Assembly: GCA_011109175.1 (NCBI GenBank)
Contig: RDEW01000012.1
Location: forward strand, 279,693 to 343,692
DNA: 64,000 bases
Direction of reading: 5' to 3'
Source: Dicyema japonicum
Taxonomy: Eukaryota; Dicyemida; Rhombozoa; Dicyemidae
Shown here: positions 16,984-60,790 of the stretch, one piece after another
Layout of the letters: every line of letters starts with the position of its first letter
Position numbering within the stretch: position 1 is the stretch's first letter
Program-made: the position numbers and the translations under genes
The notes under the pieces: model-generated
Told to the model about the DNA's origin: nothing
Seen by the model: the letters and a program-made list of their open reading frames with translations, nothing else
Databases searched by the model: none

Positions 16984-17055
16984 GCTCTCGAAGTGGAGAC
17001 TCGACACATCATCAACAAAGTCATCTGTCACAATGTTTACATCTGTCACACTGAC
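16984..17055 (-). pseudogene. Stub of LINE J3 at arm edge
   Basis: On the minus strand this reads LSKWRLDTSSTKSSVTMF, the RT thumb that follows YADD in the LINE at 59603-60790. Here the LINE is cut off at the arm edge and joined to unrelated sequence. Confidence 0.7.
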
Positions 17056-17536
17056 TTAATTTTCTCAATTTGTACTTTTAGTTCCTCAAGGCAATTTCTG
17101 AAGGTGGAAATTTCCACATTAGTATTATTTTGCACTTTGAAACATTCGCCTCCTTTTACATTGTTATTCCAATTTTCAGGTTTCAGCATCTTTTTTAGCT
17201 GACATAGACTGGAACTCTTGGAGTACTTTTCATTGAACTTTTTAAGTACGAGGTTCCAGCCACCTCTAGGTATCCTTCCAAATCTTTGTTTCGTGGCAAG
17301 AAAAATCTGAGATACCCACTCAGCTTCAGAGACCACAGTTGGACCTCTTCAATAATGGCAGATAGTGAATGCAAGTTGGTTTTGGCACCAATATTCCCAA
17401 CGATGTTGATATTAGTTCTTGTGATATTATCCAGCCCTACAGACGACGGTCCTGCTTCTCCTATACTATCTTCTTTATTTGATTTTGCAGGAAGGCCCAT
17501 AGGATTCGATTTCTCGGTATGATTAGAAACGGACAT
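17046..17536 (-). pseudogene. Unknown ORF, frameshifted left copy
   Basis: Same gene as 59127-59615 (plus), but two extra single bases near 17325-17340 (AACTGTGGTC against ACTGTGTC on the right) split the frame in two. See the right copy for the protein description. Either the left copy is broken or these are assembly errors. Confidence 0.5.
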
Positions 17537-17606
17537 GTCAACATCACAACAACTATAAATTATATATAAATAATAAATAAAGATTGATACTACAAAAGAT
17601 TATTTT

Positions 17607-17713
17607 TTAGTTAAGAAAAAATTTTTGTTTTTTTCCAATTAAGTTGGGATGTTTACGCTTTAAATGTTCGATTAAGCGCGATGACTTCATTGCCTCATTA
17701 AAAAACCGTCGAT
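17607..17713 (-). pseudogene. hAT-type BED zinc finger remnant
   Basis: The minus strand reads FFNEAMKSSRLIEHLKRKHP followed by NLIGKKQKFF. This is the second half of the BED-like finger of ZBED5/FAM200-type hAT transposases (N.AMKPSKL..HL...HP.L). The upstream Cys pair and the transposase body are absent. Confidence 0.6.
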
Positions 17714-19002
17714 AAATGATAATAATCTGACTCCTTGTGCTGGACTACTCAGAGACTTTCAGTAAGGTTGTAGGTGCCATGTATTTCGGAATATGAGTGA
17801 ATTGGAGAGAGGAATGAATAATAAATATGTGTTCATTCTCTTCTCAATGTCCCCTCTCAGAAGAAGGAATTTTGTGGAAATGTCCTCAGAAGTCTCGGAG
17901 GGGTGGTTTAGACACGGAACAATGTGGACGACTGCACAAATTTGGTTGCCGGTTCCCTCTGCATAAACATGGAAGGTTATCTCATTTATAAAAGTATGAT
18001 ATATATTTATTCCAGAAGAGATCGTCGGTAAAATTTTGAATAAAAATCAAAAAGGTAGCCAGGATGATAATGAAATAGGTTATGGAACAAAAACAATGTT
18101 CAAGCAGGCTAACAATCGAAAGTGAAAATTCTATGTAGTTCGAAGAAAATAAAATAAAAAAATCAGAAATAACTGATCAAATGTTATTTTTCTCTTCTAA
18201 TTAAATATATTATTGGATTACAAAAAAATTTCTTGACATTATGCAGATGCATAACAATTAGGAATACAAACAGATTGAAAAGAAATATAGCCCCGAGAAT
18301 ATAAATAAGGACAATTCAAATAGTGAAAAATAGTCCATATTTATAGGTTAACGAAATAAAATATATTAGACATTTTGATAACAGCCTTCAACACTATTTG
18401 TTGAATCCATAATATAATGTACAGGCTTCCTCAATTAACATTTGTTTCTTTGATAAATAATTGTCTTTAAAAATTAGTCATAATTTGACTTTAATTAATA
18501 ATCCTACAATAAATTTTGTTAGTTTAAGTGGTCTCTAATAGTTTTTATGTCCTTATCATACTCCCAGTCTGTCAATTCTACTCCGTAGATGAACTGTGGA
18601 GACTTCGAGGATGAAATTTACATAAGAAAACTGGTAGAACGGATTACGAAGGTTTGTTAAAAATCATGATTTTTATGAAAAAAATAAAAAAAAATCTGAT
18701 TTTTTCGATTTAAACAGGATTTGCCTATAATAATATTTCGATAGAAGAGCTTTTTCAAGTTTTCTTGTTAAGGGACTGTAGAGTGGGTGAGGTCATCCAA
18801 GCACATATACTGTAGCTCTCTGTATATGTTGGACATTCCATGTAACCTCTTTATTATCGTGCTACATGGTGATGTTTGAGATTACCCAGGCCAACATTTT
18901 GACAAGGCCTTTGTAGGTATCTGTATTCTTCACGGAGCCAGAAAACCTCCTTAGAGTTGGCTGATTGGAGGTCTTTGATCTTTAGGTTACGAAATTAAAT
19001 TG
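17714..19002. other. AT-rich, no gene recognised
   Basis: No coding family or promoter element is visible. The same sequence is found in the right arm at about 57661-58950. Confidence 0.4.
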
Positions 19003-19197
19003 TCAACTACAGCTTGTTAACATGAAGGAATCTGATGACAATTAGGAAGCTCACCGCAAAGACAGGTCACTACTAGAGATCTTCAAGGACGAGCATAGAG
19101 ATCTCGAACTTCTTTTTCAAAAGAGATGAACTATGTCCAAACCGCAGAGATGTGAGTCTCACTATGACAGCCTTTGGAAGCTTTGATAATAAAGTGG
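19003..19197 (-). pseudogene. Possible LINE RNase H-tail remnant
   Basis: The minus strand gives VRLTSLRFGHSSSLLKKKF and, after a frameshift, CLCGELPNCHQIPSC. This resembles the ending of jockey/I-type LINE proteins (L..LR.GHS..., then C.CG....H....C). It is short and unsupported by flanking domains. Confidence 0.35.
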
Positions 19198-19543
19198 TGA
19201 TCTTAGAGGTCTGGGTCACAGCATTTTGTTGTCTTTAAAGGCCCAGCACATATGGACAGGACGTCGTGTATTCTTTCAGTCCAAATTCTGTTTTTAGCGG
19301 ATGTGAGATTTTAAAGAGTTTTTAACAAAAGATCTCGCGAATGTGCCTGCGATTGATGGATTTGATTAGTGGAAGATTTGGTTGTTAGGGTCAAGTGATT
19401 GAAATATTGTAAACTCAGCATTTATAAGTGATCACCCGATGGTAGGATCTTCATCTTATGTAGGTGGTCAATAGGAGTAAAATTTAATCACTCCCTTATA
19501 GGATGAGATAGAACCTACTGTACCTTTTGTATGAGAGTGCGGG

Positions 19544-19989
19544 TTCAAGGTAAAATCATCGCCGTCAAGGGACCTCGTGGGCGGGTTCTTAGATAGAAGA
19601 AATCGAATAGTTCAATTCTCTAAAAAAAAGTGTTAAAATGAGATTTTTTCTATTGGCTAAAGTGGTAACTTCATTATAATGCAGAAAAGTTTTCATAATG
19701 GGAATCTCACCGTTAGAGTTGGCCAGGCAACTGCATCGTGTCGTAAGGACTCGTCGCCTTACGGGTAGGATTTAACTGACGAGAATTAGCCCTCGCTGAA
19801 GAGTAGAAAGACTGGCGAAGAGTTAAAGCTATACAGTAAATAACTATATTGACAACCTACCTACGTGGTTCCTATTGTCGATTTAATCTCTAAATCAAAT
19901 TAACGATAAAATAAAAAATCAAAATTTCGAACTCTTCTATCTAGGAACCAACCCACGAGGTCCCTTGACGGCGATGATTTTACCTTGAA
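19544..19989. mobile_element. MITE-like element with 55-bp TIRs
   Basis: The ends 19544-19601 and 19935-19989 are inverted copies (TTCAAGGTAAAATCATCGCC at the outer end) with only a few mismatches over about 55 bp. The internal 330 bp contain no ORF. The size and TIRs suit a non-autonomous DNA element. A partial copy lies at 32795-33140, but homology there runs past the right TIR to about 20045, so the mobile unit may be larger than the TIR pair. Confidence 0.65.
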
Positions 19990-20290
19990 TTTACTGGCGA
20001 TTAATTTACCGATTACTGAGAGTGATATGCATGGGGCCAACATATTATTAATAAAGGCACGTTCACAGAACCAAGGAACGTTACGTTAACCAAAATCACA
20101 AACGATTCAATATTTTCTTAACTGGGCATCTTCATCAGCCCTTGTTTTTTGCATCTGCTCGTAGGTCTTCGTCCGCACACATACGTTTTCTTCCAATCCC
20201 ATAAGATCCTTATTTAGAGCCACAAGGAGAGTGACTCTAGACCTACTTCTGAACAGCGGTCTGTTCACATTGTTATACCAGATAAACCAG
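19990..20290. other. Intergenic between MITE and LINE J2
   Basis: Bases 19990-20045 continue the segment shared with 33075-33140. Beyond that the sequence leads into the J2 LINE linker with no clear motif. Confidence 0.4.
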
Positions 20291-20294
20291 ACGG

Positions 20295-21760
20295 GGGAGT
20301 ATGCATAACGGAGGAAACACCTTCGATATTCAGGGATCAGCTCCAAAAAATTCAGGGTGTGGATCCGTGGAGTTTGATCCCTGATGACAAAAAGAAGGTG
20401 TCTGCCGATATATTTAAACACTCCGACGAGGAACTACCTATTGCTGATAGCACTGTCAGCATCTTTGAAGTGATGACAGCTATCAGGGAATGCAAGGTCA
20501 ATGCTCCAGGATATGACCACATATCAATGAAACTTATCAAAGAGGGTCCGGATATTTTGTTTGACTATCTGCGATGTCTTTATGATGGGTGTTTGCGACT
20601 TGGTCACTTGCCTTTAATATGGAAGAAAGCTGTTGTGAGGATGATTCCAAAACCAGGGAAGCCAAAGAGAGATCCGGCAAGCTACAGACCAATTAGCTTA
20701 ATATGTTCTTTCGCGAAAGTGATTGAACGTATCATTTTCAAAAGGCTAAGCAGACATATAGAAGAAAACGACTTTCTGATTCCGGAGCAGTAGGGTTTTC
20801 GTCCCGGAAGAGGCTGTGCAGACTGTTTCTTTCTACTGAATTCTAAAATCATGAAAGCAAAGGATTCCAAGAGACAAATAAACTTATTATGTCTTGATAT
20901 CTCGAAAGCATTCGACAGTGTATGCCATGAAGCGTTGTTAAAGCAGCTTGTATCAGCATGTGTTCCAAGATACCTATTTGTTTGGCTAAGAAATTATCTT
21001 CAGGAAAGACAATCTTTTGTGAAGGTGTGTGGATATATATCTGATGCAATATCATTCAAAAGAGGAGTACCTCAAGGTTCAGTATTGAGCCCTATTTTGT
21101 TTAATATATTTATAGCGAGTTTTCCACGTCCGAGGAATATTAATACTAGTCTTCTTATGCGGATGACGTAATCGTGGTGGACACATTTCTAAAATCTTCT
21201 ATATCTGAAGGAAGAATCCGGGAGTATGTCTACCAGATTGAGCATTGGTGCAACTTGAGAGGGCTAAAGCTTTCTGCTGAAAAATCTTGCGCACTCCGAA
21301 TAAGCAGTTTGAAAAAGCACCTGAAACAAGAATACACATTGGGAGTAAACAATTCACACAGTCTGCGCTACCTGGGGTCGACTATGGACACGCAGGAGAT
21401 TACATGGACGACATAAAGGGGAGGAGAAAGAGAGCCTTTCAGTCGCTCCTATGTACACGGAAGTTACACGTTAGCCGTGATACTTACCTGTTTATCTTCA
21501 AGGGAGTTATTTTCCCTAGCCTACTTTATGGGTGCGAGGGGTGGTTCTTCTCTCCGAAGATCTTATCCCTCCTAGAGAAGACTAGAAGAGCTGCAATTAA
21601 GCTCTCCTTTAAAAAGAAACTGAAAGACTGTCTAAGCGAAGACGAAAACAAGCTCTTAGAACCGATTAGCAAGATTGTGGAGGATCGGATCAATGGTTTC
21701 AGGAGGAGATCAAAGGTCCAGGACACGTATATAAAGCTGGGAGAAACGTCCTGAAAGAGA
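20295..21760 (+). pseudogene. Jockey/CR1-like LINE RT (J2), left copy
   Basis: The plus strand gives a nearly complete RT. It shows APGYDHISMKLIK (block 0/1), WKKAVVRMIPKPGKPKRDP, YRPISLICSFAKVIERII, then an in-frame TAG after LIPEQ (20791-20793), GFRPGRGCADCF, CLDISKAFDSVCHEALL and GVPQGSVLSPILFNIF. A frameshift near 21160 precedes the YADD-equivalent region, followed by LRGLKLSAEKSCALRIS and LYGCEGWFFSPK. There is no endonuclease upstream, so it is 5'-truncated. The 3' UTR ends in a (TTG)n run at 21880-21897. Confidence 0.8.
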
Positions 21761-22179
21761 TTAATAATAAAAAAAAGTAAAAAAAAGGAGGAAGGGTCCA
21801 GGTGTGGAGTCCAAGCCTTATGGTAGGACTCAGATGTAATACCCTCCAGAAATCTCCTTAACTCTTTTGTCAATAAATCGTTGTTGTTGTTGTTGTTCTC
21901 ATTGTTGAAGTAATTTCCCATCATTTTATTTTCAGGGGGCGTTTATGTCCATTCTAAGCACGTGCCCATCTGATTCAAAATATCGATGCTTCATGGCACC
22001 GATTGTGTCGCATTGTTAAAGGGACTTTTTCGGTCAATTGAGTGACATGCTACTGCACAACAAATATCGCCTGGTTTTGATGAACAGTTGATTTGATATT
22101 TAAGGTTATTGAAGGCTTCGATGGGGATGCATCCACGGACAGCAGAGTGATTTTGAACATTATCTTACATATTTGAATT
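21761..22179. other. 3' UTR of J2 and unannotated flank
   Basis: The first 140 bp are the J2 3' end with a (TTG)5-6 run. The rest carries no recognised feature. Confidence 0.4.
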
Positions 22180-22520
22180 ATATCTTTGTAGTGAGATCAA
22201 GATAGGGAGAGCTGTTGGCACACACTGAGGTGAAGATTGAAAAATGAGGGAGAGAGGACTGATAAATGAAGAACTCTGTTGGTGAGGTAACGAAAACAAG
22301 ACATATAATATAAACAAGTTTTTTTTTCAGTCTCCAGAAAAGGGAATTTGCGAACCAGGATTTCCAGAATAAAGGATATTGTCGATACTTTTTTGAATGG
22401 AGGACATGAGAAATTCGATCGAAAGCTTTTGTTAGGTCGATGGAAGGCATGACATTTTTTCAAGGAGAGAATTGTCGAAATCCTCAACAATAAAATGTAG
22501 AGGTATGAGGTTGTCATGAA
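22180..22520 (-). pseudogene. LINE RT remnant (DLTKAFDR)
   Basis: The minus strand reads CLPSIDLTKAFDRISHVLHS, matching RT block 3 with its catalytic Asp (DLTKAFD.I.H). The surrounding frames are decayed and no other block is certain. Confidence 0.5.
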
Positions 22521-22559
22521 ATTATATTTATTTAGAACCCCGGGGTCACAGAGAAAGAA

Positions 22560-23039
22560 AAAGTATAAGCAAATAGTTTAGGTAATACCAGTTCCCCCAA
22601 TTAGAACCACCATTTACTTCTGTAGTCCTCCATTGTATCCACCGCTACCTTGAAGCGTCTACTCTCGCGTTTGCATGGGAAATCGATTGGGGTAAAGAAC
22701 TTATTAAGAGATAGACTTTCATTTGCCGTGGACAGAGATAGGAAAATTGGTTTTCTGTTTTCTTAACAAAAGCGGGGGAGTCTGGCTCCACATCTACGGG
22801 TCATAATTTCTGTAACTAGAGGTCGATCCATTGATTTGTATTGCCCAGCAGTTGTCCGAGGTAGTGAATTGATCTGGTAGAGCATTCACTCCGACAGTAC
22901 AAATTCCATGTGGTAGAGCCTGTGCTATGGTATGTCGGTAAAGTTTTTTAATGTAGTTCTCCAGATTGAAAGGAGTTCTTTTGACGAGTGTACGAAAATA
23001 TTTAGTTTCTGTAGTCCTTTGTAAGAATTTGTTTTGCAT
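22560..23039 (-). CDS. Hypothetical protein, possibly split gene
   Basis: An 81-codon frame (22794-23039) starts MQNKFLQRTTETKYFRTLVK and includes HGICTVGVNALPDQF. It is identical in the other arm (53625-53870). Downstream frames (FPCKRESRRFKVAVDTMEDY) look protein-like but are offset by stops, which could mean micro-introns or decay. I do not recognise the family. It could be host or transposon-derived. Confidence 0.3.
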
Positions 23040-23159
23040 GGCTCGTGGACCTCATCAGTCTTTCGTATGTTACTCATAGAAATATGAGAAACGATGTTGT
23101 GGGTACTCGCACAAGTCGTTGATTATTATGGGATTATAATTTTCCCTCAATCCAGAAGA

Positions 23160-23400
23160 GGAATAGCCAAAAAGTAGCACCGGAGGTTCTGGGAAAGAGA
23201 AAGTTCTTATAGAATCAATGATAACTGCTCGGGTAGAAGAAATCAATAGCCCGATTCATCTATTAGGAGGAAATGCCAAGAACATAATTGTGTAGGGTCC
23301 TCCTTGTTTTTCTGTCGAGGGTAGTCTCCGAGTTATCCACCAGTGGAGAAGGTCCATTCATTAGATCGTTCTAAACCAGTATTCAGATTGCTTAGGTAGA
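23160..23400. repeat. Repeat family B, copy 1
   Basis: This shares an ordered set of blocks (AGAGAAAG, AGGAGGAA, GTGCTCCTTG variant, CTGTCGAGGGTAGT) with 23690-23935, about 65-75 percent by eye. It may be a SINE or a decayed tandem pair. A third, weaker copy may lie near 24250-24370 (GGGTAGCTTCCAAGT). Confidence 0.5.
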
Positions 23401-23689
23401 GATGTGGTCATGTATTGCCTTTGACTTGGATTATCAGGAGGTAGTTTATTATTAAAATATTCAAAATTGAATTAATATGTTTATGTTCATTGGTGTCTTT
23501 ATTATGATAAAATATTTTATTTATGGAATTATTAATATATTGAATAGTTTACTGTATTCGGATTAATAAAATAAATTATTTTACTACATGCAAAAAGACT
23601 CGAATTAGGTGGGTTAGTAGTCCAAAATATAAAATAAATAAATAAAAAGACTCGATTTAGGTGGTTTAGTTGTCCCAACCTCGATATCT

Positions 23690-23935
23690 TGTGCTGGACG
23701 CTTCTACAAGTATTCGAGTTCGTCGGAGGTCCCAAGTAAGAGAAAGCTTTTTGTAGTATCATTAATAGTTGTTCCGCTGATAAGAGCCAACAGTCCGACT
23801 CAACTCTAAGGAGGAAGTGCCCAGAACGCAGTTGTGCTACGGTGCTCCTTGTTTCTGTCGAGGGTAGTTTCCAGTTGATCCAGCAGATCGTCCAAGCCCA
23901 GTTTTCGGATGGCCTTAAAGTAGTATATGTAATAT
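23690..23935. repeat. Repeat family B, copy 2
   Basis: Second copy of the unit at 23160-23400, same orientation. Just upstream, AAAGACTCGAATTAGGTGG and AAAGACTCGATTTAGGTGG lie 55 bp apart (23593 and 23648), a small direct repeat next to an (AAAT)n run. Confidence 0.5.
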
Positions 23936-24835
23936 TGATTATACTCTCTTGAGTAATAATAATCCCATAATACTATTATGCTTAAACATAATTGTATTTA
24001 CTGGCCTAATAGAATACACGCTGTGTTCCCAATCATTAGTTTCCCACACATTGTAGGTCTTCAATATTCACACTGTGTATTTGTCTGTAAGTCTTCCCGA
24101 GAAAACGATTTAACTTTCGTTTTTATTTGTTGACCGGTAGTTAGTTATCCCAATGTACGTGAGAGTGGCGGGCGCTCCCAAAAGTTCCTTAAAGTCATGG
24201 TGGTCTAGTCCCGGAATGATTCGGTTAATTATGTGACCAATATGGTCAGATGAAAAAGCAAAAATTTAGATCCACCAAGAAAGGGAAATATTTTGAGTGG
24301 TTTTTATGAGATTTTCTGGAATCTCTATTAAGGGTAGCTTCCAAGTCGTCTATTGGTGGGCGAGAACCGTCAACAACTCGTTTCTCATTAAGTGAACCGG
24401 TAGGATTCTCCGGTTAGATATTTTAAAAATATTTTATATAGAAAGAAGATAACCGAACTGATTAAATGGTACCGGTTCACCTGAGGGCTCCATTGGTTCC
24501 TGGAAGTGTCTCCGATGTGTCTACGCAAAAAGTCGTCGGGGACAGATGTCTAAGGAAAGACCACTCATTTTCAGACCGTGATACAAATGAAAATAAAGGA
24601 GTCCCGGTTCTATACAGAACTCAAGGAATCCCTAGGCATTCCTTGATTACTAGAAAAGTGTTGAGGGTGGGGTCTTCCGACACAGTAAAATACTAGTCTT
24701 CCCAGGAAGGAGGTGATTTTGTCCAACAATAATTATGAATATGATGAATAATATTAATAATTATATATTTAAATGTAATATTAATTATTTAATAAATTAA
24801 TTTTGTCGCGCTATTTGTATTGTCGTGTTTTTGTA
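23936..24835. other. Unannotated, upstream of Ubl-like gene
   Basis: Possible weak family B copy near 24250-24370. A 76-codon frame at 24466-24696 has no recognisable family. The last 120 bp are very AT-rich and probably hold the promoter of the next gene. Confidence 0.35.
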
Positions 24836-25343
24836 ATGGAAAATTTTACTATCCCAGTTATATTACCAGATGGCTCCACAAAAGACTTCACTGTTCCTGA
24901 AAAGTAGTTAATATTAATATTGTGGTTATGTGATTGCTGAATTGCTTGATTTGGTGTGCAAGGACTCATCTCTCGACAGGTCTAATTACAAATTCAACGT
25001 CTTCATTAACAAAAATGACGATATTAACTGCAAAAATGACAAAATAGCAGACTTGGCTGTCAATTCACTCAAAATTGAGTCACTTTCTAAGAACTCAGTC
25101 AAAAAGTCTTCCAAAGGTAAGCTTGTCAGGTACTTGTTCTCCAAAATGTCTCTCAATGGGAAAAAGAAAAGATCAAAGGTAGAAAGGGTCTCCATTGAGG
25201 AATCTGACGGTCCCATGGAGTTTGTGAAGACCCCAGAAATCCCTGATGACCAGAGAGAGTGTTTGGTAACCACACTGGATGACGAGTTTGGACAAAGAGG
25301 GGACCACCTTAGATTTTGTGCTCCAAAGCCTTACAAAGTTTGA
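24836..25343 (+). CDS. Ubiquitin-like (Cordon-bleu-like?) protein, left copy
   Basis: The first exon starts at ATG 24836 and reads MENFTIPVILPDGSTKDFTV, a beta-hairpin like the start of Ubl/RBD folds. The long frame resumes at 24927 with YVIAELLDLVC, the expected helix, then SSLDRSNYKFNVFI. Removing 22 nt (24904-24925 or 24905-24926) joins the two in one 161-residue frame, but that stretch has GT at its start and no AG at its end. The C-terminal half is basic and low-complexity (KKSSKGKLVRYLFSKM) and ends APKPYKV. The LPDGS..TV layout followed by a short helix recalls the Cobl Ubl domain, but this is tentative. The right copy at 51325-51832 is identical as far as I compared. Confidence 0.5.
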
Positions 25344-25589
25344 TTAACATTTATTAACGTTGTCTTGTGATTAACACTATTGTCACGTGCTATAATTGAA
25401 CTGTCATTACACACAATTGGTGACAACTTGAAATATACTTAATCAAAATCAATAGTATTAGTCCAGTTGGTTAGGGATGTACTTTGAATGTGACATGTGG
25501 ACTCGAGTAGGAGTGTGTTACCTAGAACTTTTCATTACTTGACCGCCTTTTGTGGAAACAGACATTAATCGATAGAACATATCAGATAA

Positions 25590-25850
25590 ACCATGTATAT
25601 TGTTTGGTATTTAGTCCCGATTACCCCACCTAGTCTTCTTCAATTTCGAAGAGGCGTCACGTGGAAACAGGGGACGTCCAGTGTTTGGAAAAATAATTTC
25701 TCTCCTCCACTGGAGGGGTTTCCACAATGGCAGATATGGGTGAACGTGATGCTTGGAAAAGATGCGTCTAAATCCATTTCCGTGGGAAATGGATCACTCA
25801 GTTTTAAACTCTCTTCTTCACTTTAGTTTAGTGATCCTGTGGCAATAAAT
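25590..25850. repeat. SINE-like repeat family A, copy 3
   Basis: This shares GAGGGGTTTCCACAA, a GTCACGTGGAAAC block and GTGATCC blocks with the copy at 3851-4184. It lies downstream of the Ubl-like gene. Confidence 0.45.
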
Positions 25851-26452
25851 AATTTAAGCATCCACACTACTCTGTATTCCCATTGTCTGACTTCCCCAAG
25901 TGGGAGATTGAATATAATCGTTGTATCAATTTCGGTGGAATCCCAGTCACTATCTTCATTTTTAATTATTTAGTCAATCACTAACTTATTAATAATTTAT
26001 ATCACTTTTATTGGTTTTTTTAATATTTGAGGCAAAAAAGTACTTTTATTATTAAAAATACAATTAATTCCCATAGATACGATTTATGGATCACCAATTA
26101 TTTAACAAGTCTTTGTGAAGCAAAATAATTTTTTAATAATATCACTATGTGTCACTGAAATTAAAATAACAGACAACGGTAACATATAAATAACTACATG
26201 ATCCCGACACGCTTCAGAAGCCTCATCAATAATCCTCCTTCGAAGTTTCACAAGAACGAATCGGAGCTCGCAGTTGAGCGGGCAGCCCTCGGTTCTGATA
26301 GTTGATAGTCCAATATTCCATGGATGTCAGTGAAACTTTACAAAAAGATCACCAACTTATGGAGGAATGCCAAATGATAACGTCACCACAGCCATTTCAT
26401 TAATAATATAACAGACAAGACAATATTAACCCCATAACACCGTCATAAATAA
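25851..26452. other. Intergenic between Ubl-like gene and PDI1
   Basis: AT-rich. Near 26160-26230 a block (ACGGTAACATATAAATAACT, minus strand of a GGGATCA...TACCG motif) recalls the LINE-tail repeat at 31490 and 38510. No gene seen. Confidence 0.4.
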
Positions 26453-50819: not shown

Positions 50820-51080
50820 TTATTGCCACAGGATCACTAAACTAAAGTGAAGAAGAGAGTTTAAAACTGAGTGATCCATTTCCCACGGAAATGGATTTAG
50901 ACGCATCTTTTCCAAGCATCACGTTCACCCATATCTGCCATTGTGGAAACCCCTCCAGTGGAGGAGAGAAATTATTTTTCCAAACACTGGACGTCCCCTG
51001 TTTCCACGTGACGCCTCTTCGAAATTGAAGAAGACTAGGTGGGGTAATCGGGACTAAATACCAAACAATATACATGGTTT
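50820..51080. repeat. SINE-like repeat family A, right arm copy
   Basis: Reverse complement of 25590-25850. Confidence 0.45.
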
Positions 51081-51324
51081 ATCTGATATGTTCTATCGAT
51101 TAATGTCTGTTTCCACAAAAGGCGGTCAAGTAATGAAAAGTTCTAGGTAACACACTCCTACTCGAGTCCACATGTCACATTCAAAGTACATCCCTAACCA
51201 ACTGGACTAATACTATTGATTTTGATTAAGTATATTTCAAGTTGTCACCAATTGTGTGTAATGACAGTTCAATTATAGCACGTGACAATAGTGTTAATCA
51301 CAAGACAACGTTAATAAATGTTAA

Positions 51325-51832
51325 TCAAACTTTGTAAGGCTTTGGAGCACAAAATCTAAGGTGGTCCCCTCTTTGTCCAAACTCGTCATCCAGTGTGGTT
51401 ACCAAACACTCTCTCTGGTCATCAGGGATTTCTGGGGTCTTCACAAACTCCATGGGACCGTCAGATTCCTCAATGGAGACCCTTTCTACCTTTGATCTTT
51501 TCTTTTTCCCATTGAGAGACATTTTGGAGAACAAGTACCTGACAAGCTTACCTTTGGAAGACTTTTTGACTGAGTTCTTAGAAAGTGACTCAATTTTGAG
51601 TGAATTGACAGCCAAGTCTGCTATTTTGTCATTTTTGCAGTTAATATCGTCATTTTTGTTAATGAAGACGTTGAATTTGTAATTAGACCTGTCGAGAGAT
51701 GAGTCCTTGCACACCAAATCAAGCAATTCAGCAATCACATAACCACAATATTAATATTAACTACTTTTCAGGAACAGTGAAGTCTTTTGTGGAGCCATCT
51801 GGTAATATAACTGGGATAGTAAAATTTTCCAT
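51325..51832 (-). CDS. Ubiquitin-like (Cordon-bleu-like?) protein, right copy
   Basis: Mirror of 24836-25343 with the same two-exon reading and the same AG-less 22-nt gap. Start at the CAT (reverse ATG) 51830-51832. Identical to the left copy as far as I compared, while most nearby transposon copies show differences. Confidence 0.5.
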
Positions 51833-52734
51833 TACAAAAACACGACAATACAAATAGCGCGACAAAATTAATTTATTAAATAATTAATATTACATTTAAA
51901 TATATAATTATTAATATTATTCATCATATTCATAATTATTGTTGGACAAAATCACCTCCTTCCTGGGAAGACTAGTATTTTACTGTGTCGGAAGACCCCA
52001 CCCTCAACACTTTTCTAGTAATCAAGGAATGCCTAGGGATTCCTTGAGTTCTGTATAGAACCGGGACTCCTTTATTTTCATTTGTATCACGGTCTGAAAA
52101 TGAGTGGTCTTTCCTTAGACATCTGTCCCCGACGACTTTTTGCGTAGACACATCGGAGACACTTCCAGGAACCAATGGAGCCCTCAGGTGAACCGGTACC
52201 ATTTAATCAGTTCGGTTATCTTCTTTCTATATAAAATATTTTTAAAATATCTAACCGGAGAATCCTACCGGTTCACTTAATGAGAAACGAGTTGTTGACG
52301 GTTCTCGCCCACCAATAGACGACTTGGAAGCTACCCTTAATAGAGATTCCAGAAAATCTCATAAAAACCACTCAAAATATTTCCCTTTCTTGGTGGATCT
52401 AAATTTTTGCTTTTTCATCTGACCATATTGGTCACATAATTAACCGAATCATTCCGGGACTAGACCACCATGACTTTAAGGAACTTTTGGGAGCGCCCGC
52501 CACTCTCACGTACATTGGGATAACTAACTACCGGTCAACAAATAAAAACGAAAGTTAAATCGTTTTCTCGGGAAGACTTACAGACAAATACACAGTGTGA
52601 ATATTGAAGACCTACAATGTGTGGGAAACTAATGATTGGGAACACAGCGTGTATTCTATTAGGCCAGTAAATACAATTATGTTTAAGCATAATAGTATTA
52701 TGGGATTATTATTACTCAAGAGAGTATAATCAAT
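51833..52734. other. Upstream of Ubl-like gene, right arm
   Basis: Mirror of 23936-24835. No gene recognised. Confidence 0.35.
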
Positions 52735-52980
52735 ATTACATATACTACTTTAAGGCCATCCGAAAACTAGGCTTGGCCGATCTGCTGGATCAACTGGAAA
52801 CTACCCTCGACAGAAACAAGGAGCACCGTAGCACAACTTCGTTCTGGGCACTTCCTCCTTAGAGTTGAGTCGGACTGTTGGCTCTTATCAGCGGAACAAC
52901 TATTAATGATACTACAAAAAGCTTTCTCTTACTCGGGACCTCCGACGAACTCGAATACTTGTAGAAGCGTCCAGCACAAG
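52735..52980. repeat. Repeat family B, copy 2, right arm
   Basis: Reverse complement of 23690-23935 with one or two base changes. The adjacent A/T-run tract is a few bases shorter here. Confidence 0.5.
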
Positions 52981-53269
52981 ATATCGAGGTTGGGACAACT
53001 AAACCACCTAAATCGAGTTTTTTTATTTATTTTATATTTTGGACTACTAACCCACCTAATTCGAGTCTTTTTGCATGTAGTAAAATAATTTATTTTATTA
53101 ATCCGAATACAGTAAACTATTCAATATATTAATAATTCCATAAATAAAATATTTTATCATAATAAAGACACCAATGAACATAAACATATTAATTCAATTT
53201 TGAATATTTTAATAATAAACTACCTCCTGATAATCCAAGTCAAAGGCAATACATGACCACATCTCTACC

Positions 53270-53510
53270 TAAGCAATCTGAATACTGGTTTAGAACGATC
53301 TAATGAATGGACCTTCTCCACTGGTGGATAACTCGGAGACTACCCTCGACAGAAAAACAAGGAGGACCCTACACAATTATGTTCTTGGCATTTCCTCCTA
53401 ATAGATGAATCGGGCTATTGATTTCTTCTACCCGAGCAGTTATCATTGATTCTATAAGAACTTTCTCTTTCCCAGAACCTCCGGTGCTACTTTTTGGCTA
53501 TTCCTCTTCT
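53270..53510. repeat. Repeat family B, copy 1, right arm
   Basis: Reverse complement of 23160-23400. Confidence 0.5.
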
Positions 53511-53624
53511 GGATTGAGGGAAAATTATAATCCCATAATAATCAACGACTTGTGCGAGTACCCACAACATCGTTTCTCATATTTCTATGAGTAACATACG
53601 AAAGACTGATGAGGTCCACGAGCC

Positions 53625-54105
53625 ATGCAAAACAAATTCTTACAAAGGACTACAGAAACTAAATATTTTCGTACACTCGTCAAAAGAACTCCTTTCAATC
53701 TGGAGAACTACATTAAAAAACTTTACCGACATACCATAGCACAGGCTCTACCACATGGAATTTGTACTGTCGGAGTGAATGCTCTACCAGATCAATTCAC
53801 TACCTCGGACAACTGCTGGGCAATACAAATCAATGGATCGACCTCTAGTTACAGAAATTATGACCCGTAGATGTGGAGCCAGACTCCCCCGCTTTTGTTA
53901 AGAAAACAGAAAACCAATTTTCCTATCTCTGTCCACGGCAAATGAAAGTCTATCTCTTAATAAGTTCTTTACCCCAATCGATTTCCCATGCAAACGCGAG
54001 AGTAGACGCTTCAAGGTAGCGGTGGATACAATGGAGGACTACAGAAGTAAATGGTGGTTCTAATTGGGGGAACTGGTATTACCTAAACTATTTGCTTATA
54101 CTTTT
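53625..54105 (+). CDS. Hypothetical protein, right copy
   Basis: Mirror of 22560-23039. The open 81-codon frame is 53625-53870. Family unknown. Confidence 0.3.
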
Positions 54106-54145
54106 TCTTTCTCTGTGACCCCGGGGTTCTAAATAATATAATTTC

Positions 54146-54490
54146 ATGACAACCTCATACCTCTACATTTTATTGTTGAGGATTTCGACAATTCTCTCCT
54201 TGAAAAAATGTCATGCCTTCCATCGACCTAACAAAAGCTTTCGATCGAATTTCTCATGTCCTCCATTCAAAAAAGTATCGACAATATCCTTTATTCTGGA
54301 AATCCTGGTTCGCAAATTCCCTTTTCTGGAGACTGAAAAAAAACTTGTTTATATTATATGTCTTGTTTTCGTTACCTCACCAACAGAGTTCTTCATTTAT
54401 CAGTCCTCTCTCCCTCATTTTTCAATCTTCACCTCAGTGTGTGCCAACAGCTCTCCCTATCTTGATCTCACTACAAAGATATAATTCAAA
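54146..54490 (+). pseudogene. LINE RT remnant (DLTKAFDR), right arm
   Basis: Mirror of 22180-22520. A one-base difference in an A run near 54340 changes the downstream frame. Confidence 0.5.
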
Positions 54491-54899
54491 TATGTAAGAT
54501 AATGTTCAAAATCACTCTGCTGTCCGTGGATGCATCCCCATCGAAGCCTTCAATAACCTTAAATATCAAATCAACTGTTCATCAAAACCAGGCGATATTT
54601 GTTGTGCAGTAGCATGTCACTCAATTGACCGAAAAAGTCCCTTTAACAATGCGACACAATCGGTGCCATGAAGCATCGATATTTTGAATCAGATGGGCAC
54701 GTGCTTAGAATGGACATAAACGCCCCCTGAAAATAAAATGATGGGAAATTACTTCAACAATGAGAACAACAACAACAACAACGATTTATTGACAAAAGAG
54801 TTAAGGAGATTTCTGGAGGGTATTACATCTGAGTCCTACCATAAGGCTTGGACTCCACACCTGGACCCTTCCTCCTTTTTTTATTTTTTTATTATTAAT
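54491..54899. other. Flank and 3' UTR of J2, right arm
   Basis: Mirror of 21761-22179, including an (AAC)n run at 54763-54781. Confidence 0.4.
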
Positions 54900-56365
54900 C
54901 TCTTTCAGGACGTTTCTCCCAGCTTTATATACGTGTCCTGGACCTTTGATCTCCTCCTGAAACCATTGGTCCGATCCTCCACAATCTTGCTAATCGGTTC
55001 TAAGAGCTTGTTTTCGTCCTCGCTTAGACAGTCTTTCAGTTTCTTTTTAAAGGAGAGCTTAATTGCAGCTCTTCTAGTCTTCTCTAGGAGGGATAAGATC
55101 TTCGGAGAGAAGAACCACCCCTTGCACCCATAAAGTAGGCTAGGGAAAATAACTCCCTTGAAGATAAACAGGTAAGTATCACGGCTAACGTGTAACTTCC
55201 GTGTACATAGGAGCGACTGAAAGGCTCTCTTTCTCCTCCCCTTTATGTCGTCCATGTAATCTCCTGCGTGTCCATAGTCGACCCCCATGTAGCGCAGACT
55301 GTGTGAATTGTTTACTCCCAATGTGTATTCTTGTTTTCAGGTGCTTTTTCAAACTGCTTATTCGGAGTGCGCAAGATTTTTCAGCAGAAAGCTTTAGCCC
55401 TCTCAAGTTGCACCAATGCTCAATCTGGTAGACATACTCCCGGATTCTTCCTTCAGATATAGAAGATTTTAGAAATGTGTCCACCACGATTACGTCATCC
55501 GCATAAGAAGACTAGTATTAATATTCCTCGGACGTGGAAAACTCGCTATAAATATATTAAACAAAATAGGGCTCAATACTGAACCTTGAGGTACTCCTCT
55601 TTTGAATGATATTGCATCAGATATATATCCACACACCTTCACAAAAGATTGTCTTTCCTGAAGATAATTTCTTAGCCAAACAAATAGGTATCTTGGAACA
55701 CATGCTGATACAAGCTGCTTTAACAACGCTTCATGGCATACACTGTCGAATGCTTTCGAGATATCAAGACATAATAAGTTTATTTGTCTCTTGGAATCCT
55801 TTGCTTTCATGATTTTAGAATTCAGTAGAAAGAAACAGTCTGCACAGCCTCTTCCGGGACGAAAACCCTACTGCTCCGGAATCAGAAAGTCGTTTTCTTC
55901 TATATGTCTGCTTAGCCTTTTGAAAATGATACGTTCAATCACTTTCGCGAAAGAACATATTAAGCTAATTGGTCTGTAGCTTGCCGGATCTCTCTTTGGC
56001 TTCCCTGGTTTTGGAATCATCCTCACAACAGCTTTCTTCCATATTAAAGGCAAGTGACCAAGTCGCAAACACCCATCATAAAGACATCGCAGATAGTCAA
56101 ACAAAATATCCGGACCCTCTTTGATAAGTTTCATTGATATGTGGTCATATCCTGGAGCATTGACCTTGCATTCCCTGATAGCTGTCATCACTTCAAAGAT
56201 GCTGACAGTGCTATCAGCAATAGGTAGTTCCTCGTCGGAGTGTTTAAATATATCGGCAGACACCTTCTTTTTGTCATCAGGGATCAAACTCCACGGATCC
56301 ACACCCTGAATTTTTTGGAGCTGATCCCTGAATATCGAAGGTGTTTCCTCCGTTATGCATACTCC
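54900..56365 (-). pseudogene. Jockey/CR1-like LINE RT (J2), right copy
   Basis: Mirror of 20295-21760. It shares the in-frame TAG and the frameshift before YADD, so both lesions predate the duplication. Extra single-base indels near 55290 and 55345 are private to one arm. Confidence 0.8.
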
Positions 56366-56671
56366 CCCGTCTGGTTTATCTGGTATAACAATGTGAACAG
56401 ACCGCTGTTCAGAAGTAGGTCTAGAGTCACTCTCCTTGTGGCTCTAAATAAGGATCTTATGGGATTGGAAGAAAACGTATGTGTGCGGACGAAGACCTAC
56501 GAGCAGATGCAAAAAACAAGGGCTGATGAAGATGCCCAGTTAAGAAAATATTGAATCGTTTGTGATTTTGGTTAACGTAACGTTCCTTGGTTCTGTGAAC
56601 GTGCCTTTATTAATAATATGTTGGCCCCATGCATATCACTCTCAGTAATCGGTAAATTAATCGCCAGTAAA

Positions 56672-57118
56672 TTCAAGGTAAAATCATCGCCGTCAAGGGA
56701 CCTCGTGGGTTGGTTCCTAGATAGAAGAGTTCGAAATTTTGATTTTTTATTTTATCGTTAATTTGATTTAGAGATTAAATCGACAATAGGAACCACGTAG
56801 GTAGGTTGTCAATATAGTTATTTACTGTATAGCTTTAACTCTTCGCCAGTCTTTCTACTCTTCAGCGAGGGCTAATTCTCGTCAGTTAAATCCTACCCGT
56901 AAGGCGACGAGTCCTTACGACACGATGCAGTTGCCTGGCCAACTCTAACGGTGAGATTCCCATTATGAAAACTTTTCTGCATTATAATGAAGTTACCACT
57001 TTAGCCAATAGAAAAAATCTCATTTTAACACTTTTTTTTTAGAGAATTGAACTATTCGATTTCTTCTATCTAAGAACCCGCCCACGAGGTCCCTTGACGG
57101 CGATGATTTTACCTTGAA
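56672..57118. mobile_element. MITE-like element with 55-bp TIRs, right arm
   Basis: Reverse complement of 19544-19989, TIRs intact. Confidence 0.65.
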
Positions 57119-57465
57119 CCCGCACTCTCATACAAAAGGTACAGTAGGTTCTATCTCATCCTATAAGGGAGTGATTAAATTTTACTCCTATTGACCACCT
57201 ACATAAGATGAAGATCCTACCATCGGGTGATCACTTATAAATGCTGAGTTTACAATATTTCAATCACTTGACCCTAACAACCAAATCTTCCACTAATCAA
57301 ATCCATCAATCGCAGGCACATTCGCGAGATCTTTTGTTAAAAACTCTTTAAAATCTCACATCCGCTAAAAACAGAATTTGGACTGAAAGAATACACGACG
57401 TCCTGTCCATATGTGCTGGGCCTTTAAAGACAACAAAATGCTGTGACCCAGACCTCTAAGATCAC

Positions 57466-57660
57466 CACTTTATTATCAAAGCTTCCAAAGGCTGTCATAG
57501 TGAGACTCACATCTCTGCGGTTTGGACATAGTTCATCTCTTTTGAAAAAGAAGTTCGAGATCTCTATGCTCGTCCTTGAAGATCTCTAGTAGTGACCTGT
57601 CTTTGCGGTGAGCTTCCTAATTGTCATCAGATTCCTTCATGTTAACAAGCTGTAGTTGAC
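57466..57660 (+). pseudogene. Possible LINE RNase H-tail remnant, right arm
   Basis: Mirror of 19003-19197, with LTSLRFGHSSSLLKK and CLCGELPNCHQIPSC in different frames. Confidence 0.35.
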
Positions 57661-58949
57661 AATTTAATTTCGTAACCTAAAGATCAAAGACCTCCAATCA
57701 GCCAACTCTAAGGAGGTTTTCTGGCTCCGTGAAGAATACAGATACCTACAAAGGCCTTGTCAAAATGTTGGCCTGGGTAATCTCAAACATCACCATGTAG
57801 CACGATAATAAAGAGGTTACATGGAATGTCCAACATATACAGAGAGCTACAGTATATGTGCTTGGATGACCTCACCCACTCTACAGTCCCTTAACAAGAA
57901 AACTTGAAAAAGCTCTTCTATCGAAATATTATTATAGGCAAATCCTGTTTAAATCGAAAAAATCAGATTTTTTTTTATTTTTTTCATAAAAATCATGATT
58001 TTTAACAAACCCTTCGTAATCCGTTCTACCAGTTTTCTTATGTAAATTTCATCCTCGAAGTCTCCACAGTTCATCTACGGAGTAGAATTGACAGACTGGG
58101 AGTATGATAAGGACATAAAAACTATTAGAGACCACTTAAACTAACAAAATTTATTGTAGGATTATTAATTAAAGTCAAATTATGACTAATTTTTAAAGAC
58201 AATTATTTATCAAAGAAACAAATGTTAATTGAGGAAGCCTGTACATTATATTATGGATTCAACAAATAGTGTTGAAGGCTGTTATCAAAATGTCTAATAT
58301 ATTTTATTTCGTTAACCTATAAATATGGACTATTTTTCACTATTTGAATTGTCCTTATTTATATTCTCGGGGCTATATTTCTTTTCAATCTGTTTGTATT
58401 CCTAATTGTTATGCATCTGCATAATGTCAAGAAATTTTTTTGTAATCCAATAATATATTTAATTAGAAGAGAAAAATAACATTTGATCAGTTATTTCTGA
58501 TTTTTTTATTTTATTTTCTTCGAACTACATAGAATTTTCACTTTCGATTGTTAGCCTGCTTGAACATTGTTTTTGTTCCATAACCTATTTCATTATCATC
58601 CTGGCTACCTTTTTGATTTTTATTCAAAATTTTACCGACGATCTCTTCTGGAATAAATATATATCATACTTTTATAAATGAGATAACCTTCCATGTTTAT
58701 GCAGAGGGAACCGGCAACCAAATTTGTGCAGTCGTCCACATTGTTCCGTGTCTAAACCACCCCTCCGAGACTTCTGAGGACATTTCCACAAAATTCCTTC
58801 TTCTGAGAGGGGACATTGAGAAGAGAATGAACACATATTTATTATTCATTCCTCTCTCCAATTCACTCATATTCCGAAATACATGGCACCTACAACCTTA
58901 CTGAAAGTCTCTGAGTAGTCCAGCACAAGGAGTCCGAATATTATCATTT
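57661..58949. other. AT-rich, no gene recognised, right arm
   Basis: Mirror of 17714-19002. Confidence 0.4.
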
Positions 58950-59056
58950 ATCGACGGTTTTTTAATGAGGCAATGAAGTCATCGCGCTTAATCGAACATT
59001 TAAAGCGTAAACATCCCAACTTAATTGGAAAAAAACAAAAATTTTTTCTTAACTAA
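58950..59056 (+). pseudogene. hAT-type BED zinc finger remnant, right arm
   Basis: Mirror of 17607-17713. It reads FFNEAMKSSRLIEHLKRKHP and stops at 59054-59056, about 70 bp before the next ORF. Confidence 0.6.
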
Positions 59057-59126
59057 AAAAGAATCTTTTGTAGTATCAATCTTTATTTATTATTTATATA
59101 TAATTTATAGTTGTTGTGATGTTGAC

Positions 59127-59615
59127 ATGTCCGTTTCTAATCATACCGAGAAATCGAATCCTATGGGCCTTCCTGCAAAATCAAATAAAGAAGATAGTAT
59201 AGTAGAAGCAGGACCGTCGTCTGTAGGGCTGGATAATATCACAAGAACTAATATCAACATCGTTGGGAATATTGGTGCCCAAACCAACTTGCATTCACTA
59301 TCTGCCATTATTGAAGAGGTCCACTGTGTCTCTGAAGCTGAGTGGGTATCTCAGATTTTTCTTGCCACGAAACAAAGATTTGGAAGGATACCTAGAGGTG
59401 GCTGGAACCTCGTACTTAAAAAGTTCAATGAAAAGTACTCCAAGAGTTCCAGTCTATGTCAGCTAAAAAAGATGCTGAAACCTGAAAATCGGAATAACAA
59501 TGTAAAAGGAGGCGAATGTTTCAAAGTGCAAAATAATACTAATGTGGAAATTTCCACCTTCAGAAATTGCCTTGAGGAACTAAAAGTACAAATTGAGAAA
59601 ATTAAGTCAGTGTGA
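59127..59615 (+). CDS. Unknown 162-residue protein, intact right copy
   Basis: From the ATG at 59127 the frame runs 162 codons. The upstream in-frame ATG at 59025 is less likely because that stretch overlaps the BED remnant and is low-complexity. The N-terminal third is Ser/Asn-rich (MSVSNHTEKSNPMGLPAK). The middle, EWVSQIFLATKQRFGRIPRG followed by GWNLVLKKFNEKY and LCQLKKML, has the W...F...Y....L..L spacing of Myb/SANT-like DNA-binding modules found in transposon proteins. The end is helical (CLEELKVQIEKIKSV). It may be an ORF1-type or transposon accessory protein. Not recognised with confidence. Confidence 0.4.
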   Translation: MSVSNHTEKSNPMGLPAKSNKEDSIVEAGPSSVGLDNITRTNINIVGNIGAQTNLHSLSAIIEEVHCVSEAEWVSQIFLATKQRFGRIPRGGWNLVLKKFNEKYSKSSSLCQLKKMLKPENRNNNVKGGECFKVQNNTNVEISTFRNCLEELKVQIEKIKSV

Positions 59616-60790
59616 CAGATGTAAACATTGTGACAGATGACTTTGTTGATGATGTGTCGAGTCTCCACTTCGAGAGCCATAGTTTCAGCTTGTCAAGCAT
59701 TCGTTGAGCGGAATGAGTCGCTGATTGAATGCTTCTGTCCTTGAAGGCAAGAATGATATCGTCGGCATAGGAGAGGATTAGGCAGTTTTCATTACAGGTT
59801 AGTGGCATTTCGTTTTTAGATTTAAAAGGGCTGACGATAGTGGGGATCCTTGAAAGACTCCATTTGGTATGAGACGGGATTTTGACTTTATGTTATTGCA
59901 AATCCACGTCTCCCACTTAAGAAGTTGGCAATCCATAGTTTTATGTTCGGATGGATGCACGTATCGTAAATTTTCTCACTAGGAGTTTTCTTGAGACTGT
60001 GTCGAAAGCCTTTGTTATATCAACAGAGACCAAGACTGTTAGTTGGTGTGGTTTAGTGGAATTGAATCCCTCCGCAATGAACTGGCACAGGGACGTTAGG
60101 TATGTTGCTGTTGAGTGTTTAGCCCGGATTCCATGTTGGAAAGGAGAGATGTAGTCTGGATGTAGTCTTTGATATCTTCAAGAACTAATCTTTCGAGTAT
60201 TCAAAGTGAACATGAAATCGAGATTAATCTGTAGGAAGAGGGGTCATTTTTGGATTTTCCTAGTTCAAGATCGGTTTGATGTATGATCTATTCCAGACAT
60301 CCAGAATAATGTTCATATTTATTGATATTGTAAATATGTAAGCAATTAAATCTAAAGCAAGAGGTCCTATATGCTTTAGTTCTGTTGTATAAATATTGTC
60401 TGGACCTAGAAATTCCAAAGAGTTTCGGGCCTTTGATATTGCCCACTGGACGTCCTTCGCCGTAAATGTGGTCCACACGTATGATCCTTTCGGTTTTATT
60501 CTGTTTAAGAGTACTTGGTGTTCTTTGGAGTGGTTTTTATATGCTATGAAAGCATAGTATTTCATTAAGGTGTTTGGTTGTAATGATATCCCTTTTTGCG
60601 GTTCATCAAAAGACATTTTGATAGACTTGATTTTGTCCCAGACCTTCTGTACTGACGGATTTTCTGTTAGGGCTTTTGATAGTTCAGTCCAGCGTTTCTC
60701 GTTTGTTTTATTGATATATTGAGAAGAGCTGTTCAGGATTCTCGACCTCAAATTGGTCTGGTTTCAGTAACCTCTTTGAATTGGCCAGAG
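59603..60790 (-). pseudogene. Jockey-like LINE (J3) crossing the arm edge
   Basis: The minus strand, read from the right, gives VWDKIKSIKMSFDEP, FTAKDVQWAISKARNSLEFL, GPDNIYTTELKHIGPLALDL and WNRSYIKPILN (RT blocks 0-1), then decayed blocks, then LILSYADDIILAFKDRS (catalytic YADD) and LWLSKWRLDTSSTKSSVTMF. The last part lies within the right arm. Stops are frequent between 59830 and 60260. It is 3'-truncated at about 59603. Confidence 0.75.

What the first reader, a model, noticed from the sequence alone, without database searches (positions are those of the whole stretch)
16984..59677. Near-perfect 42.7-kb palindrome with 20.6-kb arms and a 1.48-kb spacer
Every gene and transposon in 16984-37599 recurs in reverse at 39075-59677. 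Inverted duplications this large and this similar are unusual outside sex-chromosome palindromes, amplified loci or parasite telomeric regions. Arm identity looks above 98 percent by eye, with real private differences in each arm, so it is not a simple mirrored read. If genuine, it doubles two PDI genes and a Ubl-like gene.
Basis: partly seen in the sequence, partly recalled or inferred. Interest (0 to 1): 0.88.

Follow-up and report, generated by a model that had tools for sequence, protein, structure and literature searches.

The report
Recent 42.7-kb inverted duplication, likely dicyemid
A stretch of about 20 thousand bases, with two protein-folding enzyme genes and several retrotransposons, sits twice head-to-head in what looks like the genome of a tiny octopus parasite (a dicyemid); its centre carries the scar of a DNA end that folded back and copied itself, so it looks like a real, recent mirror-image duplication of a known kind.

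Summary
Confirmed in the sequence: arm A 16984-37599 and arm B 39075-59677 are 99.27% identical around a 1,475-bp spacer, without N. Two arm probes find no third copy. Interrupted LINEs date the joints. One LINE runs unbroken across the outer right edge. A nested LINE pair, with a 6-bp target duplication, runs across the arm A/spacer edge. So 16983/16984 and 39074/39075 are the new joints. The centre joint holds a 25-bp filler, 21 bp of which is a perfect inverted copy of 38661-38681, a fold-back repair signature. Outside two divergent LINE patches the arms differ at 0.18%, in clusters. The host is probably a dicyemid: 64.7 Mb, introns of 22-26 bp (PMC6736024, PMC6543705, passages). At D. japonicum's 1.24% heterozygosity, alleles would differ about 240 times, not 35; that rate is borrowed. 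Each arm carries one foreign-looking LINE patch. Two PDI-like genes are doubled; no Ubl-like domain was found in the frames tested. Reads and depth could not be tested. Best reading: genuine fold-back inverted duplication; known kind, unusual host.

The parts
16984..37599 (+). Arm A of the palindrome; its outer end is cut inside LINE X (derived outer joint)
   Evidence: Self-BLAST; MAFFT
39075..59677 (-). Arm B, reverse-complement copy; its inner end is cut 20 bp inside LINE Y (derived inner joint)
37600..39074 (.). Spacer, 1,475 bp: rest of LINE Y (with a ~300-bp insertion), LINE X piece, 25-bp filler
37552..39049 (+). LINE X copy (endonuclease part, + sense) running from arm A into the spacer, interrupted by LINE Y; shows A-spacer is original order
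   Evidence: Match to the X copy at C111:259924-260514; about 30 further genomic places for 38592-39049
37580..38577 (+). LINE Y, 5'-truncated insertion into X with a 6-bp target duplication (37574-37579 and 38578-38583) and an A-rich end; it crosses the arm A/spacer edge
   Evidence: Overlap and letters; Y copies
37976..38278 (.). ~303-bp repeated insertion inside LINE Y, about 9-bp target duplication; copies mostly 88-91% identical
   Evidence: Empty sites at four places (L004, L005, L006/L008, L007); copies
39050..39074 (.). 25-bp filler at the new centre joint; 39052-39072 is a perfect inverted copy of 38661-38681
   Evidence: 21 bp, against a maximum of 13 in 2,000 shuffles of the filler
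39074..39075 (.). Derived centre joint, filler to arm B
16983..16984 (.). Derived outer joint: left flank (single copy in the sampled 684 bp) to a 57-bp piece of LINE X
16984..17040 (+). 57-bp piece of the outer LINE X left at arm A's outer end
59621..60720 (-). LINE X copy (reverse transcriptase part) running unbroken across the arm B/right flank edge; shows B-right flank is original order
   Evidence: 25 of 42 match rows start at 59621-59622 and run past 59677; extent to 60720
29196..29785 (+). Divergent LINE patch 1 (4.8% between arms); arm B is the odd one
36083..36740 (+). Divergent LINE patch 2 (9.3% between arms); arm A looks the odd one
26453..28009 (-). PDI-like gene 1 in arm A (two CGHC thioredoxin domains, introns of 22, 24 and 26 bp); ends read by eye
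48656..50215 (+). PDI-like gene 1, copy in arm B (coordinates mapped from the arm alignment)
33640..35080 (-). Divergent PDI-like gene 2 in arm A (CYYC in the last domain); ends approximate
41589..43029 (+). PDI-like gene 2, copy in arm B; ends approximate
17052..17588 (.). High-copy element near the outer end, 95.5-97.4% identical to six sampled copies over about 500 bp

Best explanation
A genuine, recent segmental inverted duplication made by fold-back repair synthesis. In the original order (right flank read backwards, arm, spacer, something now lost) a break fell inside LINE X at about 39049. The end folded back on itself, first copied 21 bases from about 0.4 kb behind, then let go and paired again about 1.45 kb behind, inside LINE Y at 37599, and copied the whole arm outward: this made arm B and its right flank, with the spacer as the former loop. 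The left side was then cut or switched 57 bp inside the outer LINE X and joined to the left flank, either by breakage of a mirror chromosome or because the same event had begun there. Since then the arms may have been kept alike by arm-to-arm gene conversion, and two LINE patches look like conversion from other LINE copies. Shown: the palindrome, which joints are old and which new, the inverted filler, clustered differences, no third copy of the probed parts. Inferred: the repair route, conversion, the host, and that the contig is not chimeric.
For: LINE X is continuous across 59677/59678 (25 of 42 rows). X with nested Y and its 6-bp target duplication is continuous across 37599/37600 (a weaker first sign, 6 of 7 loci above 200 shuffles). 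That leaves two new joints. The centre joint carries 25 bp of filler, 21 of them an exact inverted copy of 38661-38681 (longest match in 2,000 shuffles: 13); short templated inverted insertions made by fold-back are documented in yeast (PMC11724301, passages), as are fold-back inverted duplications (PMC10622511, passages). The two sides of each new joint are not copies of one repeat. No insertion is private to an arm. Outside the patches 35 of 19,350 columns differ, clustered beyond all 5,000 random placements, at the same rate in repeats and elsewhere (0.164% and 0.188%, judged with a 285,527-base library). If heterozygosity resembles D. japonicum's 1.24%, alleles would give about 240 differences.
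Against: No read depth or spanning reads. What lay beyond the spacer and left of arm A originally is not identified, so microhomology at the breaks cannot be measured. 18 of 23 indels are single bases and may be consensus errors, as may a pair of compensating homopolymer shifts at 34740-34744. For the odd arm of each patch no near-identical donor was listed over the whole patch, so a consensus mixed from several LINE copies is not excluded there. The spacer's LINE X piece and the right flank's LINE X piece nearly abut in element coordinates (60 bp apart), which this model leaves to coincidence.
Confidence: 0.8

Rival explanations
1. Assembly artefact: one real arm was laid down twice through chimeric or amplification-made palindromic reads, or two haplotypes were folded end to end.
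For: Whole-genome amplification makes artificial palindromes (PMC6218980, abstract and outline), and a minute parasite may have needed it. Reads could not be checked.
Against: Two independent false joints would be needed, neither between copies of one repeat. An inverted templated filler sits at the centre joint. The arms carry private differences including an in-frame 3-bp indel at 27167 and patches of 5-9%. Alleles at 1.24% would differ about seven times more, if that rate applies. The sampled left flank is not present twice.
Confidence: 0.13
2. A direct tandem pair or a circle of the arm, with one LINE X between the copies, was later rearranged by inversion, so that the spacer's X piece and the right flank's X piece are halves of one element.
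For: The two pieces cover complementary parts of X with a 60-bp gap, and the right flank has no match to the spacer's X piece.
Against: A simple inversion would leave spacer-like sequence next to 60720; in the self-comparison and only the ~300-bp insertion element recurs in the right flank (61891-62118). X is a high-copy family, so two copies are expected anyway. The inverted filler explains the centre joint directly.
Confidence: 0.05
3. Old palindrome kept alike by continuous arm-to-arm gene conversion, as on mammalian sex chromosomes, with the two LINE patches as unconverted remnants of the true age. (This can be combined with the fold-back origin; it is a rival on age only.)
For: Long runs with no substitution between clusters of differences; precedent in PMC3723533 and PMC8981503 (search listing with start of abstracts).
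Against: Every insertion is shared, including a high-copy element. In patch 1 only arm B departs from a related LINE copy (23 mismatches against 4 of 322), which fits imported sequence better than symmetric ageing.
Confidence: 0.12

Closest known systems
Fold-back inversions / inverted duplications from double-strand breaks (yeast, cancer; PMC10622511, passages)
   Same: Inverted copy around an unduplicated centre, one new centre joint
   Different: The unduplicated centre here is 1,475 bp, not the 6-bp repeat spacer described in the passages; the outer end joins an interstitial flank; the intermediate cannot be observed
Short templated inverted insertions at breaks (yeast; PMC11724301, passages)
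   Same: A 21-bp inverted copy of nearby sequence at the joint, within the 5-34 bp reported for most
   Different: Here it is followed by a second, 20.6-kb inverted copy
MMBIR complex duplications (PMC2621351, search listing with start of abstract)
   Same: Repeated template switches would give the two new joints, the filler and the two old contiguities
   Different: Microhomology could not be measured because the original junctions are missing
Mammalian X/Y palindromes with arm-to-arm conversion (PMC3723533, PMC8981503; search listing with start of abstracts)
   Same: Near-identical long arms, clustered differences
   Different: No evidence of a sex chromosome; apparently young; an invertebrate parasite
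Long inverted repeats with gene pairs in C. elegans (PMC1803023, abstract and outline)
   Same: Nearly perfect inverted gene duplicates in an invertebrate genome
   Different: There conservation across species was shown; here no relative could be compared

Membership tests
Large near-identical palindrome (inverted segmental duplication) | Two arms over 10 kb, over 99% identical, inverted, short spacer | tested here: met
   20.6 kb, 99.27%, 1,475-bp spacer
Large near-identical palindrome (inverted segmental duplication) | Present in the chromosome, full read depth | not testable with these tools
   No reads available; only an N-free window
Fold-back inverted duplication | One arm with original contiguity to the centre, one new centre joint | tested here: met
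   X with nested Y continuous across 37599/37600; Y cut after 20 bp in arm B
Fold-back inverted duplication | Signs of fold-back synthesis at the joint (inverted templated filler) | tested here: met
   21 bp inverted from 38661-38681
Fold-back inverted duplication | Priming microhomology or short inverted repeat at the break | tested here: inconclusive
   The letters at the joint are; the original continuation of this X copy is unknown, so the primed bases cannot be told from the copied ones
Gene-converting palindrome (sex-chromosome type) | Arm identity above that of alleles and clustered differences | tested here: inconclusive
   Clustering met; the allele comparison uses D. japonicum's published rate, not this genome's
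Gene-converting palindrome (sex-chromosome type) | Location on a sex chromosome | not testable with these tools
   Contigs are unnamed; no sex data
Dicyemid genome | Spliceosomal introns mostly under 30 bp | tested here: met
   22, 24 and 26 bp in PDI-like gene 1, three introns only, picked by reading frame from 99 candidate GT-AG stretches, no RNA data; published median 27 bp (PMC6543705, passages)
Dicyemid genome | Genome of about 65 Mb, GC about 37%, rich in LINEs | tested here: met
   64.67 Mb and window GC 38.5%, against 67.5 Mb and 36.7% (PMC6736024, passages); LINEs seen in the window only
Dicyemid genome | Phylogenetic placement by conserved genes | not tested
   COX1 found nothing in the assembly; the best named reverse transcriptase relative is 47% identical, in an Octopus sinensis record, and other named relatives are oomycete, mollusc, sponge and crinoid

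The most novel reading that the evidence does not exclude
The palindrome is a product or a substrate of the programmed somatic DNA rearrangement and amplification reported for dicyemids: a mirror-image amplicon present in some nuclei, or a germline palindrome that seeds amplification of a PDI locus; the LINE X pieces that nearly join end to end would then mark a circular or tandem stage.
Probability: 0.04. Interest if true: 0.85.

Novelty: new member of a known kind. Interest (0 to 1): 0.4.

Why it matters
If confirmed by reads, it is a rare case in which the steps of a long inverted duplication can be read from one genome: old and new joints from interrupted LINEs, and a fold-back scar at the centre. 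It would let arm-to-arm and LINE-to-LINE gene conversion be measured in what is probably a dicyemid, and show whether their unusual somatic genome rearrangement touches large palindromes. Whether such a palindrome has been reported in a dicyemid is not settled: only searched for 'dicyemid', each listing 15 of several thousand papers that held two of the terms; none of the listed titles or abstract starts mentions one.

Tried and rejected
Rejected: a tRNA or structured RNA behind the 72-bp stretch at 28129-28200 that is identical in many places; ARAGORN and Rfam found nothing in the window and its neighbours show a LINE tail ending in an AAT run. Rejected: that arm A's patch 1 was copied from the L018 LINE; against the whole element A looked too similar (Fisher p 0.0013), but sliding windows show both arms equally close to L018 on either side of the patch, so B is the odd one. 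Corrected: I first took the spacer end as unique, where only 40 of 3,106 candidates were scored; one search shows that it is LINE X. Corrected: 37560-37579, aligned to LINE Y, belongs to LINE X; Y begins at 37580. Corrected: 59621 is where this X copy is broken inside its reverse transcriptase frame, not a proven end of the element. The fold-back confidence was raised slightly (0.78 to 0.80) and the artefact's lowered (0.15 to 0.13) because of the filler found.

Led nowhere: viral contig scan with a LINE protein; PDB search with an exon of PDI-like gene 2; protein search with a reading frame of PDI-like gene 1; COX1 in the assembly; a copied filler at the left joint (longest exact match of the last 40 bases of the left flank elsewhere in the window: 12 bp). 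Structure prediction was not run; it would not bear on the question.
Full report
OBSERVATION. The window (64,000 bases, no N, GC 38.5%) holds one long inverted match, 16984-37599 against 59677-39075, 99.273% over 20,629 columns. It lies at C23:279693-343692 of an assembly of 64,672,829 bases in 191 contigs; C23 is 1,393,140 bases. Arm-to-arm MAFFT gives 67 transitions, 57 transversions and 23 indels; 18 indels are one base and the longest is 4. Both sides diverge abruptly at the stated edges. In 264 kb around it (13,655 bases read N) no other inverted pair of at least 98% over 700 bp was found; the other long matches are dispersed copies and a 45-bp satellite.

COPY NUMBER. A 4.2-kb arm probe (24000-28200) finds the two arms and 39 short matches, all to a LINE tail at its end (40 of 244 candidates scored). 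A second probe (33300-35200) finds the two arms and two matches of about 80 bp at 77-78% (all 4 candidates scored). The left flank part 16300-16983 matches only itself (40 of 229 candidates scored). The probed parts thus have no third copy and no second allele in the assembly. The right flank beside the arm is LINE, so its copy number was not tested.

WHICH JOINTS ARE OLD. Outer right edge: the probe 59400-60300 gives 42 match rows; 25 start at 59621-59622 and run past 59677, so LINE X crosses the edge of arm B unbroken, on to 60720. Arm A keeps 57 bp of it (16984-17040) before the left flank. Inner left edge: a LINE X copy on contig 111 matches 39049-38578 and, next to it, 37579-37552 with a 6-bp overlap. 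So one X copy runs from arm A (37552) into the spacer (39049) and is interrupted by a 5'-truncated LINE Y insertion (37580-38577) flanked by the same 6 bp (37574-37579, 38578-38583). Y itself carries a ~303-bp insertion with about 9 bp duplicated, judged from empty sites at four places. The edge 37599/37600 lies 20 bp inside Y. Thus A-spacer and B-right flank are original, and 16983/16984 and 39074/39075 are new.

THE CENTRE JOINT. X ends at 39049. The next 25 bases are neither X nor arm; 39052-39072 is an exact inverted copy of 38661-38681, 0.4 kb back in the same spacer (21 bp; 2,000 shuffles of the filler reach at most 13). Arm B then starts at 39075. This is what a broken end leaves when it folds back, copies a little, lets go and pairs again further back. 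Short inverted templated insertions made by fold-back (most 5-34 bp) are documented in yeast (PMC11724301, passages), and so are large fold-back inverted duplications through hairpin-capped and dicentric intermediates (PMC10622511, passages). How the left flank became attached is open: breakage of a mirror chromosome, or a first template switch in the same event. No copied filler was seen at the left joint. These routes are inference.

UNEXPLAINED. The spacer's X piece and the right flank's X piece are the endonuclease and the reverse transcriptase part of the same family (frames), and in the contig 111 copy they are only 60 bp apart. The right flank has no match to the spacer's piece. That could be chance between two copies of a common element, or one element split, which would imply a tandem or circular stage. 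I count the second as a minor rival.

AGE AND LATER HISTORY. Outside two patches the arms differ at 35 of 19,350 columns (0.18%); the differences cluster more than in any of 5,000 random placements (also after merging neighbours within 10 bp into 29 events), with a largest gap of 4,324 bases (random p 0.004; 0.016 after merging). The rate is alike in sequence with matches in my 285,527-base library and in the rest (9 of 5,498 and 26 of 13,852). The two patches, 28 of 587 and 61 of 656, lie in LINEs. In patch 1 a LINE copy 100 kb away (L018) agrees with A at 23 and with B at 5 of 28 differing sites; within 29196-29520 A has 4 and B 23 mismatches of 322, while on both sides the arms are equally close to it. 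In patch 2 a copy from contig 111 (L047) agrees with B at 44, with A at 14 and with neither at 3 of 61 sites; identities are A 89.8%, B 94.4%, flanks 96.2% (52 columns) and 93.6% (110 columns) (A against flanks, Fisher p 0.07, not significant). So B looks patched in the first and, less surely, A in the second. Donors: for B in patch 1 the best other long match is 93% (one 99-bp row at 97% lies at the edge, outside the divergent core); for A in patch 2 it is 89-90% (one 197-bp row at 94%). Conversion from an unassembled copy and a consensus mixed from several copies both remain possible. Some single-base indels may be sequencing errors.

HOST. Pointers to a dicyemid: size 64.67 Mb against 67.5 Mb, GC 36.7% and many LINEs in Dicyema japonicum (PMC6736024, passages); introns of 22, 24 and 26 bp in PDI-like gene 1 against a median of 27 bp in Dicyema and 57 bp in an orthonectid (PMC6543705, passages); and the best named reverse transcriptase relative (47% identity over 85%) is in an Octopus sinensis record, though oomycete, mollusc, sponge and crinoid records follow (the best 120 of 248 were listed). 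That octopus records may hold parasite DNA is my inference. D. japonicum heterozygosity is 1.24%; at that rate 240 differences would be expected between alleles over 19,350 columns, against 35. The rate is borrowed, so this is supportive only.

GENES. PDI-like gene 1 (about 28009-26453, minus) has two CGHC thioredoxin domains (E 2.8e-18 and 4.3e-13). PDI-like gene 2 (about 35080-33640, minus) is divergent: Thioredoxin E 3e-05 (above cut-off) and 8.2e-04 (below), Thioredoxin_6 E 1.6e-05 (below). The genome-wide thioredoxin search lists 19 matches, six of them in the arms (three per arm); matches on C125 and C126 score better, so the locus is not the only source of PDI-like genes. The frames at 24785-25340 have no Pfam support for a Ubl domain.

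NOVELTY. A large near-identical palindrome, and fold-back formation, are known kinds. What is fresh is the probable host, the legible joints and the LINE patches. Dicyemids are reported to rearrange, eliminate and amplify DNA in somatic cells (PMC6543705, passages; the word beginnings 'palindrom' and 'inverted' do not occur in its main text). A somatic origin is conceivable, but nothing in the sequence asks for it.

Noticed in passing
Contig C23:437358-443692 (L036), outside the window: A 45-bp tandem satellite array of at least 6.3 kb, highly uniform, running to the end of the stretch fetched.
   Followed up: no
38592-39049 and 59621-60720: Endonuclease and reverse transcriptase parts of the same LINE X family, on opposite strands, only 60 bp apart in element coordinates: chance, or two halves of one element.
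   Followed up: partly
28129-28269 (and arm B): 5'-truncated LINE tail with an AAT run; its first 72 bp occur 33 further times at 100% over full length among the matches listed, a sign of recent activity.
   Followed up: partly
37976-38278; similar piece at 61891-62118: About 303-bp repeat inserted in LINE Y with about 9-bp target duplication; probably a MITE (label recalled, not tested).
   Followed up: partly
17052-17588: High-copy element 95.5-97.4% identical to six sampled copies over about 500 bp.
   Followed up: partly
G000:C155:134457-210786 and C159:369683: Three thioredoxin-like frames of 170-228 aa within 76 kb on C155, and one of 228 aa on C159, with nearly the same match span: perhaps another duplicated gene.
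   Followed up: no
34740-34744 (arm A) and its arm B partner: Two compensating one-base homopolymer shifts change VV to GR in PDI-like gene 2 between the arms; probably consensus error in one arm.
   Followed up: partly
60720-60747: 28 bp next to the end of the right flank's LINE X piece recur at 96-100% in L025 and L029; unexplained.
   Followed up: no
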